DNA of 36,169 nucleotides, from positions 1-36,169 of IMG/VR virus record IMGVR_UViG_3300035698_012437; one strand, written 5' to 3'. Source of the stretch: a virus. The translations under genes and the position numbers were made by a program. The stretch's first letter is position 1; the number at the start of each line of letters is the position of its first letter. Below the pieces are notes generated by a model. That model worked only from the letters and a program-made list of their open reading frames with translations, had not been told where the DNA came from and searched no databases. Positions 13,180 through 21,022 of this stretch are shown here, piece after piece.

Positions 13180-14067
13180 ATGGTAGAAGTTATAAGTAAT
13201 GATTGGATTATGGCTGTATTTAATTCAGTTCCTACTGATGATTTACCTTTAACAGAAAGTGAATTTACAGGTATGTTTCCAAATGCTAATGCTACTTTTA
13301 CTTATCAAGGTTTAGTAGACGCATCTAATAAATTTGATGGATTGTTTTTAACAGGTGAAACTAGAGAAGATAAATTAAAAGAGTTACTTGTTTTTCTATC
13401 TCAAGCATCGCATGAGACCACTGGAGATGGTTACGCTAGTGGTACTTACATTAATGGATTGTATTTCGTAGCTGAAAATAACGACAACACGGCTATACTA
13501 TCTCAATACGGTACTAATGCCGATGGTACTGCTAGTTATCAAGGTAGAGGAGCTTTACAGTTAAGTTATGAAGTAAACTATCAAGGAGCTATGGATGGGA
13601 TACCTAATAATAATTATGATATAGTTACTGACCCTACATTAGTTGGTTCTGTACCAGAATTAGCTTTTGAATCTGCTCTTTGGTTTTGGGTTACTCCCCA
13701 AGGTAATAAGCCTAGTTGCTCAGCTGTTATAAATGGCACTTGGATACCTAGTAATAACGATATAGAGAAAAACCGTACTGGTGATACTTTCTTTAATAGC
13801 TTTGGTGTTGTAACTAATATCATTAATGGAGGTATTGAAGCAGGCTCATGGGACAATGGTACTAGTGAGATTATACCTTTAGGTAATGGTTTAGCTACAG
13901 GAAATACAGACCCTGTAGATGATGGTAAAAATGCTCAATCAATTAATAGACAACAATACTATAATTATTTTGTTAACAATTTTTTTGATGATTTAAATTT
14001 ACCTATTTTTGATGCTACTGGTATAGAAACTAACGCAGCTTACAACCAAGCAAATTTCTTGTTTTAA
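13180..14067 (+). CDS. GH19 chitinase-type endolysin/muralytic enzyme
   Basis: 295 residues with AAGGATAATATAAG before the ATG. The GH19 core is clear. SQASHETTG carries the catalytic acid Glu79. A second Glu (Glu99 in FVAENN) lies where the base is expected. QGRGALQLSYEVNY spans 121-134, ALWFWVTPQGNKPSC spans 166-180, and FGVVTNIINGG spans 208-218. GH19 enzymes in phages usually cleave the beta-1,4 glycan backbone of peptidoglycan for lysis; tail-associated use is also possible because the gene follows fibers. There is no signal peptide or transmembrane helix, and no holin was recognised nearby. The frame continues after the TAA as an S74-like fragment. Confidence 0.85.
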   Translation: MVEVISNDWIMAVFNSVPTDDLPLTESEFTGMFPNANATFTYQGLVDASNKFDGLFLTGETREDKLKELLVFLSQASHETTGDGYASGTYINGLYFVAENNDNTAILSQYGTNADGTASYQGRGALQLSYEVNYQGAMDGIPNNNYDIVTDPTLVGSVPELAFESALWFWVTPQGNKPSCSAVINGTWIPSNNDIEKNRTGDTFFNSFGVVTNIINGGIEAGSWDNGTSEIIPLGNGLATGNTDPVDDGKNAQSINRQQYYNYFVNNFFDDLNLPIFDATGIETNAAYNQANFLF

Positions 14068-14910: not shown

Positions 14911-14985
14911 TCCCCGATAGCTCAGCGGTAGAGCAGTTGACTGTTAATCAATTGGTCGGTGGTTCAAATCCGTCTCGGGGAGCCA
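14911..14985 (+). tRNA. tRNA-Asn (anticodon GTT), CCA encoded
   Basis: 75 nt fold as a full cloverleaf. The acceptor stem TCCCCGA pairs with TCGGGGA, followed by G and an encoded CCA. The D arm is AGCTCAGCGGTAGAGC, the anticodon loop is CTGTTAA with GTT, and the T arm contains GGTTCAAATCC. Asn codons AAT and AAC are very common in these genes, so the phage may use it to supplement the host pool. An attachment site is the other common reason for a tRNA in a phage, but no integrase is seen. Confidence 0.95.
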
Positions 14986-18248: not shown

Positions 18249-19251
18249 ACAAAAAATAAGATGTATTAGATTATTGTTAGAAATGGATAGAGAAAGTTTT
18301 GATGATGATGGTAATAATGTTAAAGAAATAATTAGCTGGACTAATCCAAGTAAATTAAACATTGAAGTTACACTTGATGAAAGTTTAGTTATATTTGGCA
18401 ATAGTGCTACTGTAAAAATATTTGGTATGGATATTGATAGTTGTTTTGCATTTACTAAATTTAATTCCATATTTGTTGAATATTATAATCATGTGAGTAT
18501 TTTTGCTGGTATTTTAGATAGTAATAATTTAGATATAGATAATTCAAGTGATAGCGAGATAGAGGAATATATAAGGGGTAATATACCGTTAGCTTATAAT
18601 GGTGTAATATCTGTTGCTGGAGCTGATTTTAACGACCCTAACAGACCTTTTTATATATCATCTAGCATGAGCTATGGTAATTCTGTAGCTATATTAGATA
18701 ACACTTCTATAAATGAAACTACCACTACTGAAAATGTATTAAAAGATATTATTGATGCTAATAATATTACTGATAGTACAAAGTTTGAAATAGTTTTTGA
18801 TGGTAGTAGCAAAGATATAAATAAAGCTTATTATACAGGTGATTTTGTTACTCAATTAACTATGTTTTGCAACGATTATGGTTATAGATTTTCTATTAGT
18901 GGTAACAAAGTATACATTACAGATGTAGGTACTGCTTTTTCATTTGGTAAAATAAAGTTATTACAACAAGCTTTTGATGGTGAGATTGGTGTTATAGGAT
19001 ACCCTACAATAAAACCTATGTTATTTTCTGTAAAATCAATTTATGATAATTCTTTAGGTGTATTAAATAAAGTTTATTTAGATACAGATTATAGACCGTT
19101 TAATAATTACCCTGATGCTGGAAGTCGCAGAGGTAACAATAGAAATACATTTTATGAGATACAACAAAAAAAAAGCCAATTATCTACTAACAATAGCCAA
19201 TGGGAAAGTGAATTAACAATAGTGGAGATGTTAAAAGATAATGGAAATTAA
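18241..19251 (+). CDS. Baseplate hub protein (gp44/gpD-like)
   Basis: 336 residues. The start is GTG 18241, after a GGAGG site, overlapping the tape measure stop. The text VIFGNSATVKIFGMD followed by FNSIFVEY is the usual first beta domain of hub proteins, and YTGDFVTQLTMFCNDYGYRF with a following ISGNKVYITD strand fits the second. Such hubs form the trimeric ring that holds the spike. It ends overlapping the terminase start by 11 nt. Confidence 0.7.
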   Translation: MSKQKIRCIRLLLEMDRESFDDDGNNVKEIISWTNPSKLNIEVTLDESLVIFGNSATVKIFGMDIDSCFAFTKFNSIFVEYYNHVSIFAGILDSNNLDIDNSSDSEIEEYIRGNIPLAYNGVISVAGADFNDPNRPFYISSSMSYGNSVAILDNTSINETTTTENVLKDIIDANNITDSTKFEIVFDGSSKDINKAYYTGDFVTQLTMFCNDYGYRFSISGNKVYITDVGTAFSFGKIKLLQQAFDGEIGVIGYPTIKPMLFSVKSIYDNSLGVLNKVYLDTDYRPFNNYPDAGSRRGNNRNTFYEIQQKKSQLSTNNSQWESELTIVEMLKDNGN

Positions 19252-21022
19252 ACTTACAAAAGATTGGAAGAATTTTATAGAGTCAGATAAGAAATTAAAA
19301 ATATCATTTGGAGGTCGCAGTGGAGGTAAAACTTTTGCTATAGCTATTATATTATTATGTTTAGCATCTCAAAAAAAGATTAAAATATTATGTTGTCGTG
19401 AATTTCAAGCATCTTTAGAAGATAGTGTATATTCAACATTTAAAGAAATATGCGAAAATATACCCTTATTTAATGATTTTTTTAAATTCCTTAGAAATAA
19501 AATAGTTGGTGCTAATGGCTCTGAATTATTATTTAAAGGTTTGCAAAATCCTGATAGTTTAAAATCAATTCCTAAAATAGATTATGCTTGGTTAGAAGAA
19601 GCTCAATCTGTTAGTTTTGATAGTTATAAAAAATTAGAAGCAACTGTAAGACCAAGTGCTTTTAGTATTGACGATAATTGTCAAATATGGGTATCTATGA
19701 ACCCTGATAGTTTAGATGATGTGCTTTATAAAGAAATCATAAAAGAACATAAAAACACTCATATACTTAAAGTTAATTATAATGATAATCCTTTTTGCCC
19801 ACAATCCATGATTGATTTGGCAGAAAAAGAAAAAGAAGAAGATTATGAAAGTTATAGGCATATATGGTTAGGTGAACCTATAAGTATAAATGAAGTGCTT
19901 ATATATGCTAACAAATGGACTGTAAAAGAATTTAATCCAAACATAGATTTGTATAATGGTACTTTAGAATTTGAAGGTAGCCATAAAAAAGTTAGGTATG
20001 GTATTGATATTGGAGGTAGTAGTCCTACTGCTGTTTGTGAGTGCTTTATACATGATAATTGTCTTTATATACATAATGAGATATACAAAAGAAATATGTC
20101 AGCAGAAGAGCTTACACAAGCTATTACAGATACAATGCCATTAGCATATAGTCATAGTGCCAGTATAACAGGAGATAACAATAATGTATCTTTCTTAAAT
20201 GGTATAATGAAAGATAGGGTTGTAGATAATGTATTTTATAAAGGACTAAAGGTTAAAACTGCTATGAAAGGTCCAGGTAGCGTTTTAACTGGTATTAAGT
20301 ACATAAGGTCATTTAAAAGAATATATATCCACCCTAGGTGTAAAAATGCTATTAAAGAGATGGGTTTGTATTCTTATAAGGTTAATCTTAAAACGGGTGA
20401 AGTTATTCATGACATGGTTGTTAAGAAATACGATCATTTTTGTTTTAGTGGAGATACTAAAGTTATTGTAAATAATCAAGAAATGATGTTTAAAAATATT
20501 CCTGAGAGTGGAGTAGTTAAAGGTTTTGATGGTAAAAATATTAAATATAAAAATGGTGGTTATATTAAGTGCGATAAGTTATTGAGTATAATTCTAGAAG
20601 ATGGTGAAATAATAAAATCAACAAAAGAGCATAAGTTTTTAACTACAGATGGTTGGTTAGAAGCTAAACATTTAAAAGGAAGATTATTATGCAACAAATA
20701 TTTAATCGAAAAAAATACAGCTCAAACAAATGCAATTCAGAATCGCGAAGAGATAGCGGAATTGATAATATCAAAGGTTAATGTGAATGCTGCAAAAATG
20801 TATTATCAAAAACTTGTAGTAGAAGTTTCTCGAACAGGATTAGAGCAAGAAAAAACATATTGCCTAACAACTGAACAAGGGGCGTTTAGTTTAGCAAATG
20901 GTATTATAGTAAGTAATTGCGATGCTTTGCGTTATGGTTGTGAAGATGGATACTATAGAAAAAAGAATGTTACATATGATGCTGGTAAATATGAAAGAGC
21001 TTTAAAACAAGCTTCTAAATAA
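19241..21022 (+). CDS. terL: Terminase large subunit with an intein in the nuclease domain
   Basis: 593 residues as encoded, 434 after removal of a 159-residue intein. The N-terminal packaging ATPase has Walker A GGRSGGKT (24-31), Walker B IDYAWLEEA (113-121) and the coupling motif VSMNPDS near 150. The C-terminal RNase H-like nuclease starts with YGIDIGG (about residue 250). Its last motif is D-H-F then C-D-A-L-R-Y-G, and the intein lies between F400 and C560, just before the conserved Asp. The domain order and motifs fit the Terminase_3 group. The nuclease motif is complete only after splicing, so packaging may depend on it. The stop overlaps tail-to-tail with a baseplate-cluster gene by 21 nt. 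Confidence 0.9.
   Translation: MEIKLTKDWKNFIESDKKLKISFGGRSGGKTFAIAIILLCLASQKKIKILCCREFQASLEDSVYSTFKEICENIPLFNDFFKFLRNKIVGANGSELLFKGLQNPDSLKSIPKIDYAWLEEAQSVSFDSYKKLEATVRPSAFSIDDNCQIWVSMNPDSLDDVLYKEIIKEHKNTHILKVNYNDNPFCPQSMIDLAEKEKEEDYESYRHIWLGEPISINEVLIYANKWTVKEFNPNIDLYNGTLEFEGSHKKVRYGIDIGGSSPTAVCECFIHDNCLYIHNEIYKRNMSAEELTQAITDTMPLAYSHSASITGDNNNVSFLNGIMKDRVVDNVFYKGLKVKTAMKGPGSVLTGIKYIRSFKRIYIHPRCKNAIKEMGLYSYKVNLKTGEVIHDMVVKKYDHFCFSGDTKVIVNNQEMMFKNIPESGVVKGFDGKNIKYKNGGYIKCDKLLSIILEDGEIIKSTKEHKFLTTDGWLEAKHLKGRLLCNKYLIEKNTAQTNAIQNREEIAELIISKVNVNAAKMYYQKLVVEVSRTGLEQEKTYCLTTEQGAFSLANGIIVSNCDALRYGCEDGYYRKKNVTYDAGKYERALKQASK
20441..20917 (+). other. Mini-intein (159 aa) within the terminase
   Basis: Residues 401-559 of the precursor. 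Block A is CFSGDTKVIV with nucleophile Cys1. Block B is IIKSTKEHKFLTTDGW, with the T-x-x-H pattern in S-T-K-E-H. The C-terminal block is TYCLTTEQGAFSLANGIIVS and then Asn, with +1 Cys in the C-extein. There is no DOD or HNH homing endonuclease, only a short linker of about 40 residues. The penultimate residue is Ser instead of the usual His, and the block F His is also missing, so splicing chemistry must differ from the standard route or be slow. Confidence 0.9.

What the first reader, a model, noticed from the sequence alone, without database searches (positions are those of the whole stretch)
20441..20917. Mini-intein inside the terminase nuclease motif with altered splice residues
The intein interrupts the final nuclease motif between D-H-F and C-D-A-L-R-Y-G, so unspliced protein lacks an intact active site. 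It has no homing endonuclease, and the penultimate His and block F His are replaced (VSN then +1 Cys). Splicing may be slow or conditional and could time DNA packaging.
Basis: partly seen in the sequence, partly recalled or inferred. Interest (0 to 1): 0.75.

Follow-up and report, generated by a model that had tools for sequence, protein, structure and literature searches.

The report
Phage terminase mini-intein with endonuclease relic
A phage DNA-packaging enzyme carries a self-splicing insert (an intein) placed right next to its third cutting-site residue, and the insert still holds, in a shifted reading frame, the broken tail of the homing endonuclease that spreads its relatives; its altered splice residues run in its family, so they are no evidence for a packaging timer.

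Summary
Window 20441-20917 encodes a 159-residue intein (C1...S158-N159, then +1 Cys) inside a PBSX/SPP1-type large terminase. It sits one residue before the third nuclease Asp (DHF|C-D-ALRY), a site empty in 109 of 160 terminase relatives sampled without regard to inteins. All class 1 splicing residues are present and the model has the HINT fold. Penultimate Ser, missing block-F His and Cys at F:4 are real but run in the family: of 24 distinct F:4-Cys inteins among 194 environmental terminase C-termini, all lack that His and 20 lack the penultimate His. So they do not point to slow or conditional splicing; the packaging-timer idea has no support. 'No endonuclease' needs correction: in frame -1, bases 20704-20853 hold a decayed tail of an HNH homing endonuclease (E=1e-7). 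In the wider family, 146 of 193 distinct inteins carry a near-complete HNH gene in that frame; in 125 the intein frame reads straight through it (about 13 of 146 expected open by chance). The window is an endonuclease-deleted derivative of an overprinted intein/HNH family, apparently unreported for inteins (closest precedent: the ShiLan hidden HNH, not an intein). Splicing itself is inferred.

The parts
19241..20440 (+). TerL N-extein (residues 1-400): ATPase and most of the RNase H-like nuclease, D256 (20006-20008) and D312 (20174-20176)
   Evidence: Terminase_3 4e-42, Terminase_3C 5e-10, TIGR01547 2e-45; motif alignment
20441..20917 (+). Class 1 mini-intein, 159 aa, C1 to N159
20441..20479 (+). 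Block A, CFSGDTKVIVNNQ, nucleophile Cys1
   Evidence: Cys1 invariant in 17 mini-inteins
20603..20644 (+). Block B with TKEH: Thr61 (B:7) and His64 (B:10); Phe66 at B:12
   Evidence: Thr and His invariant; alignment to Npu DnaE
20704..20853 (+). Decayed C-terminal zinc-ribbon tail of an HNH homing endonuclease in frame -1 to the intein: NRKKYSSNKCNSESRRDSGIDNIKG*CECCKNVLSKTCSRSFSNRIRARK; HNH core deleted, one stop, two Cys lost
   Evidence: HMM of 151 nested HEGs, positions 168-224 of 232, E 1.3e-7 in the terL gene, only hit in the six-frame window, E 4e-6; 0 of 3000 codon-shuffled frames reach it
20852..20899 (+). Block F, Cys141 at F:4 (20861-20863), block-F His replaced by Gly
20894..20917 (+). 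Block G, ANGIIVSN: penultimate Ser158, Asn159
20918..21019 (+). C-extein, +1 Cys560 then third catalytic Asp561 (20921-20923), DALRYG...
   Evidence: alignment to intein-free TerL and to SPP1 G2P 2WBN

Best explanation
This is a splicing-competent class 1 mini-intein that descends from a widespread family of phage terminase inteins. In that family an HNH homing endonuclease gene is nested in frame -1 inside the intein, so that the linker of the splicing domain is the shifted reading of the endonuclease gene. In the window's lineage the HNH core was lost (about 167 of 232 model positions) while the intein frame stayed open; the last 50 or so codons remain as a decayed relic forming the disordered linker. 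Shown: site, splicing residues, fold prediction, relic, family architecture. Inferred: the intein splices autonomously by Cys1 thioester, transfer to Cys+1 and Asn159 cyclization (with Cys at F:4 and Ser at the penultimate position in place of the usual Asp and His), and this restores DHFCDALRY and with it the third metal-binding Asp of the nuclease. It persists because only exact deletion would preserve terminase; no regulatory role is needed.
For: Splicing residues invariant across 17 mini-inteins. HINT fold, Z 18.0-18.3 to Ssp DnaB and Npu DnaE inteins. Spliced sequence aligns without a gap to intein-free TerL; 109 of 160 relatives found by the N-extein show the empty motif, one (L257) reading NHYCDALRY. 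F:4 Cys with missing His residues is shared: 24/24 and 20/24, clustered on the tree around the window. Relic. Family: 193 distinct loci, 168 with an HEG match, 163 of these in frame -1; 125 continuous inteins with an HEG of 150 or more stop-free codons; substitutions at HEG codon positions 1, 2, 3 are 1870, 1567, 3163 over 36 separate pairs, HEG identity 0.64 against 0.43 in the intein frame. GC of intein and N-extein equal, 28.3%.
Against: Splicing is not tested. The window intein is divergent (highest identity 36%, end branch 2.32) and lacks Asp F:4 and both C-terminal His residues; a dead or cleavage-only intein cannot be excluded by sequence. The relic is short; synonymous shuffles that keep the intein protein reach its score in 6 of 2000 cases (expected, since frame -1 is largely fixed by the first two bases of intein codons). 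No close relative with an intact endonuclease was found.
Confidence: 0.85

Rival explanations
1. Conditional intein: replaced residues make splicing slow or dependent on redox, zinc or temperature, so that splicing times DNA cutting and packaging.
For: The site blocks the nuclease motif; in the precursor model residues 397-399 and 560-563 have pLDDT under 50. Cys1, Cys141 and Cys+1 could in principle be redox-sensitive. TerL inteins with temperature optima are known (AceL-TerL, PMC11766414).
Against: The residues are a lineage trait in many phages and environments, not special to this one. Mycobacteriophage TerL inteins tested spliced readily (PMC5050341). No regulatory element or condition is seen.
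Confidence: 0.06
2. Decayed intein that no longer splices; the phage is a dead lineage or the precursor works unspliced.
For: Endonuclease lost, long branch, F:4 Asp and both C-terminal His absent.
Against: The frame is intact over 159 aa with every nucleophile and TxxH kept; the exteins are intact; TerL is essential; the family with the same residues is widespread.
Confidence: 0.06
3. Variant mechanism: Cys F:4 takes part as an extra nucleophile (a class 1/class 3 hybrid).
For: Cys at F:4 is the branch point in class 3 inteins (PMC4031507), and here it goes with loss of the block-F His.
Against: Cys1 is kept; the Trp B:12 and Thr G:5 of class 3 are absent (Phe66, Val157). The association is mostly one lineage, and L003 is an exception (Cys F:4 with both His).
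Confidence: 0.12
4. The frame -1 similarity is a chance by-product of the linker, not a relic.
For: Short stretch, low-complexity basic residues.
Against: Right family, right frame (as in 163 of 168), right place before block F, right part of the HEG; 0 of 3000 codon-shuffled frames reach it (top 7.8 against 22.1 bits); other mini-inteins L125 and L184 hold the same relic in the same frame, L065 weakly.
Confidence: 0.04

Closest known systems
Phage TerL inteins of mycobacteriophages (TerL1-a to e, TerL6-f, Pham3880-g)
   Same: Inteins in the large terminase; two sites one residue apart; tested ones splice
   Different: All lie in the ATPase domain (PMC5050341); this one lies in the nuclease domain next to the third Asp
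Npu/Ssp DnaE class 1 inteins
   Same: HINT fold, Cys1, TxxH, penultimate Ser in NGFIASN
   Different: Naturally split, with Asp F:4 and a block-F His; here contiguous, Cys F:4, Gly
Class 3 inteins
   Same: Cys at F:4; phage association
   Different: Cys1 present here; Trp B:12 and Thr G:5 absent
ShiLan domain with hidden out-of-frame HNH in phage methylases (PMC11855218)
   Same: HNH endonuclease with zinc fingers in a shifted frame while the host-gene frame stays open
   Different: ShiLan has no intein splicing domain; here the element is an intein, and the window keeps only the tail
Split-intein 'fractured genes' with a homing endonuclease between the halves (recalled, not read here)
   Same: Several relatives (L017, L020, L115, L121) are split with the HEG between the halves
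   Different: In 125 relatives the intein is continuous and the HEG overlaps it
Brochothrix phage BL3 and Bacteriophage sp. MT838676 TerL inteins
   Same: Same nuclease motif; HEG tail (BL3) or nearly whole HEG (MT838676) in frame -1
   Different: Inserted one codon earlier (NH|C-x-DA); BL3 has two in-frame stops

Membership tests
Class 1 intein | Cys/Ser at position 1 | tested here: met
   Cys401, invariant in 17 mini-inteins
Class 1 intein | Block B TxxH | tested here: met
   T461, H464
Class 1 intein | C-terminal Asn and Cys/Ser/Thr +1 | tested here: met
   N559, C560
Class 1 intein | HINT fold | tested here: met
   Model with pLDDT about 85-93 in most of the splicing domain; Z 18 to solved inteins
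Class 1 intein | Penultimate His and block-F His (common, not obligatory, so not decisive for membership) | tested here: not met
   Ser158 and Gly
Class 1 intein | Ligated exteins produced | not testable with these tools
   needs expression
Class 3 intein | No nucleophile at position 1; Trp B:12, Cys F:4, Thr G:5 | tested here: not met
   Cys1, Phe, Cys, Val; only Cys F:4 fits
Class 2 intein (KlbA type) | Ala1 | tested here: not met
   Cys1
PBSX/SPP1-type TerL | ATPase plus RNase H-like nuclease with three Asp | tested here: met
   TIGR01547 156 bits against cut-off 105; D256, D312, D561
HNH_3 homing endonuclease (functional) | Intact HNH core and open frame | tested here: not met
   Only model positions 168-224 of 232 remain, with a stop; relatives match PF13392
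F:4-Cys TerL-nuclease intein subfamily | Cys F:4, no block-F His, TerL third-Asp site | tested here: met

The most novel reading that the evidence does not exclude
Phage terminase-nuclease inteins form a family in which two proteins are overprinted: the self-splicing domain in frame 0 and an HNH homing endonuclease in frame -1. Selection acts on the endonuclease sequence while the intein frame is only kept free of stops. The window is a loss stage in which the endonuclease core is gone and its out-of-frame tail survives as the intein linker.
Probability: 0.85. Interest if true: 0.7.

Novelty: new variant of a known kind. Interest (0 to 1): 0.6.

Why it matters
Textbook inteins carry the homing endonuclease in frame as a domain. 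Here over a hundred distinct inteins in one essential phage gene appear to encode it in a shifted frame, which explains long disordered 'linkers' that annotation misses, suggests a route to split inteins and to mini-inteins, and supplies relics that record endonuclease loss. The F:4-Cys group lacking both C-terminal His residues is also a natural test set for how inteins compensate, and a source of new splicing tools.

Tried and rejected
Close relatives by protein search in IMG/VR and species genomes: none. Near-identical DNA in phage records: only the tRNA-Asn. Relatives cannot be drawn for a virus record. Covariation of F:4 Cys with His loss: strong by counts (Fisher 5e-15 and 2e-6) but the tree gives only one well-supported independent pair, so it may be one lineage; not claimed as coevolution. 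L003 breaks the rule. Class 3 and class 2 rejected on sequence. Fold models gave no coordinates to measure active-site distances. Free-standing HEG in the window: none found, though not every small ORF was run against Pfam. Several key papers (Tori 2010 and 2011) were not held, and the fractured-genes paper was not read, so novelty of inteins with out-of-frame HEGs is judged from the open library only.

Full report
WHAT IS THERE. The window is an IMG/VR virus record of 36169 bases, a small contractile-tailed phage with portal, protease, capsid, sheath and baseplate genes and 28.7% GC. The ORF 19241-21022 encodes a 593-aa large terminase of the PBSX type (TIGR01547 2e-45; Terminase_3 and Terminase_3C). 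Residues 401-559 (20441-20917) are an intein: Pfam Intein_splicing 2e-8 on the excised intein (34.5 bits, just under the curated 35.8), intein_Nterm and intein_Cterm above their cut-offs.

THE SITE. The spliced protein, joined in a script, aligns without a gap to intein-free phage terminases, which read NHCWDAVRY, NHCIDAIRY, NHYIDALRY at this place; the window reads DHF|CDALRY. In nine intein-free homologues N, H, the third Asp, R and Y are invariant. A profile of them aligns to the solved SPP1 G2P nuclease (2WBN, Mn-bound 2WC9) with NHTIDATRY over this motif; in the related G20c enzyme the three metal-binding Asp are indispensable (PMC5389553). So the intein lies one residue before the third catalytic Asp (D561 of the precursor). 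In a sample of terminases chosen by N-extein similarity alone, 109 of 160 show the empty motif and few hold an intein (L273 for one); many of the rest are gut alphaproteobacterial proteins with another C-terminus. The related L257 reads NHYCDALRY, with a Cys already at the +1 place.

TWO INSERTION REGISTERS. Both registers, one codon apart, are used by inteins: H-x|C-DA (as here) and H|C-x-DA (as in BL3, MT838676 and the Manatee Spring phage). By contrast mycobacteriophage TerL inteins lie in the ATPase domain (PMC5050341).

SPLICING RESIDUES. Cys1, Thr and His of block B, Gly, Asn and Cys+1 are invariant in 17 aligned mini-inteins. AlphaFold2 gives the HINT fold (about 85-93 pLDDT in most of the splicing domain, disordered linker 103-134 of the model), Z 18.3 to the Ssp DnaB intein and 18.0 to Npu DnaE. 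In addition position F:4 is Cys. Among 194 distinct C-termini, 24 have Cys F:4 (the window included); all 24 lack the block-F His and 20 lack the penultimate His, against 30 and 48 of 153 with Asp or Asn. One GenBank member added later, L003, has Cys F:4 with both His. The F:4-Cys inteins cluster on the tree and the window falls among them on a long branch, so this is best read as an inherited trait. F:4 Cys is the second commonest residue there in inteins (PMC4031507), and inteins lacking the penultimate His can splice (PMC7664689; Npu DnaE ends ASN). Class 3 is excluded by Cys1 and by Phe and Val at the Trp and Thr places.

THE ENDONUCLEASE. Relatives hold an HNH_3 homing endonuclease (PF13392, 2e-17) with two zinc ribbons, nested between the N and C halves of the intein. 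A profile of 151 of these was searched back. 168 of 193 distinct loci match, 163 in frame -1 relative to the C-terminal half of the intein and 5 in frame +1; 146 are near full length in frame -1, and in 125 the intein frame is continuous through the endonuclease gene. If the endonuclease codons are shuffled synonymously, about 13 of the 146 would have an open intein frame; 128 do. All 125 endonuclease frames are open over at least 150 codons (median ORF 209); start codons with a Shine-Dalgarno-like motif are found in 35 of 125 against 13 of 250 control frames; and in 36 separate pairs the substitutions fall on HEG codon positions 1, 2, 3 as 1870, 1567, 3163, with identity 0.64 in the HEG frame and 0.43 in the intein frame. 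So the endonuclease is the constrained reading and the intein linker the tolerated one. In others the intein is split into two ORFs with the HEG between (L017, L020, L115, L121).

THE RELIC. The window's intein carries, in the same frame -1 and just before block F, NRKKYSSNKCNSESRRDSGIDNIKG*CECCKNVLSKTCSRSFSNRIRARK at 20704-20853. It matches profile positions 168-224 of 232 with E 1.3e-7 in the terL gene, is the only hit in the six frames of the window (E 4e-6), and no codon-shuffled intein of 1000 (3000 frames) reaches its score (top 7.8 against 22.1 bits). Synonymous shuffles reach it in 6 of 2000, as expected when frame -1 is mostly set by the intein residues. Mini-inteins L125 (1e-9), L184 (6e-6) and weakly L065 (0.009) hold the same kind of relic in the same frame, and so does BL3 (1e-23, tail only). 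The HNH core is gone, one stop and two lost Cys mark decay. The mini-intein is therefore best read as an endonuclease-deleted derivative, and its disordered linker as the shifted reading of the old endonuclease tail.

MECHANISM. Best supported: autonomous class 1 splicing restores the third metal-binding Asp; the element's ancestors were mobile through the overprinted endonuclease and it now persists by descent (inference). Equal GC of intein and N-extein (28.3%) fits long residence. A timer role is not excluded but nothing supports it: the residues are family-wide and tested mycobacteriophage TerL inteins splice readily. The precursor model leaves the junction residues unresolved (pLDDT under 50 at 397-399 and 560-563), which fits but does not prove an inactive nuclease before splicing.

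NOVELTY. Hidden out-of-frame HNH genes were described in 2025 in a phage methylase insertion that is not an intein (PMC11855218). No paper found in the held library describes inteins with an overprinted HNH; literature outside that library could not be checked. The window itself is a new variant of a known kind; the family is the more interesting find.

Noticed in passing
L137, L131, L245, L048, L176 and 120 others: Continuous TerL inteins whose linker is the frame-shifted reading of a near-complete HNH_3 homing endonuclease gene in frame -1.
   Followed up: yes
L017, L020, L115, L121, L158, L182, L209: TerL split inteins with the HNH gene between the two halves, its tail next to or overlapping the C-intein ORF.
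   Followed up: partly
L002 (Brochothrix phage BL3, NC_015254, gp2/gp3): TerL intein with two in-frame stops and an HNH tail in frame -1; gp3 is annotated as a separate gene but holds the C-intein and the last nuclease motif, so BL3 terminase may need trans-splicing.
   Followed up: partly
L077 and L027: Short split F:4-Cys inteins (N and C halves in different frames within 500 bases); L077 shows a piece of the HNH zinc-ribbon tail, so it looks like a split intein after endonuclease loss.
   Followed up: partly
L022, L062, L010, L058, L123: Group with Ala at F:4, no block-F His and penultimate Ser (for example VFATTTTSGFFVAGGVVVSNC), about 248 aa.
   Followed up: no
window 14911-14985: tRNA-Asn (GTT), with about 93% identity to T4-like phage tRNA-Asn over 55 bases.
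   Followed up: no
window 13180-14067: GH19 chitinase-like endolysin (1e-42).
   Followed up: no
L290-L336 (mostly gut alphaproteobacterial genomes): Match the window TerL best over the ATPase part (up to 42%) but many have a different C-terminus without the DHxxDALRY motif.
   Followed up: no
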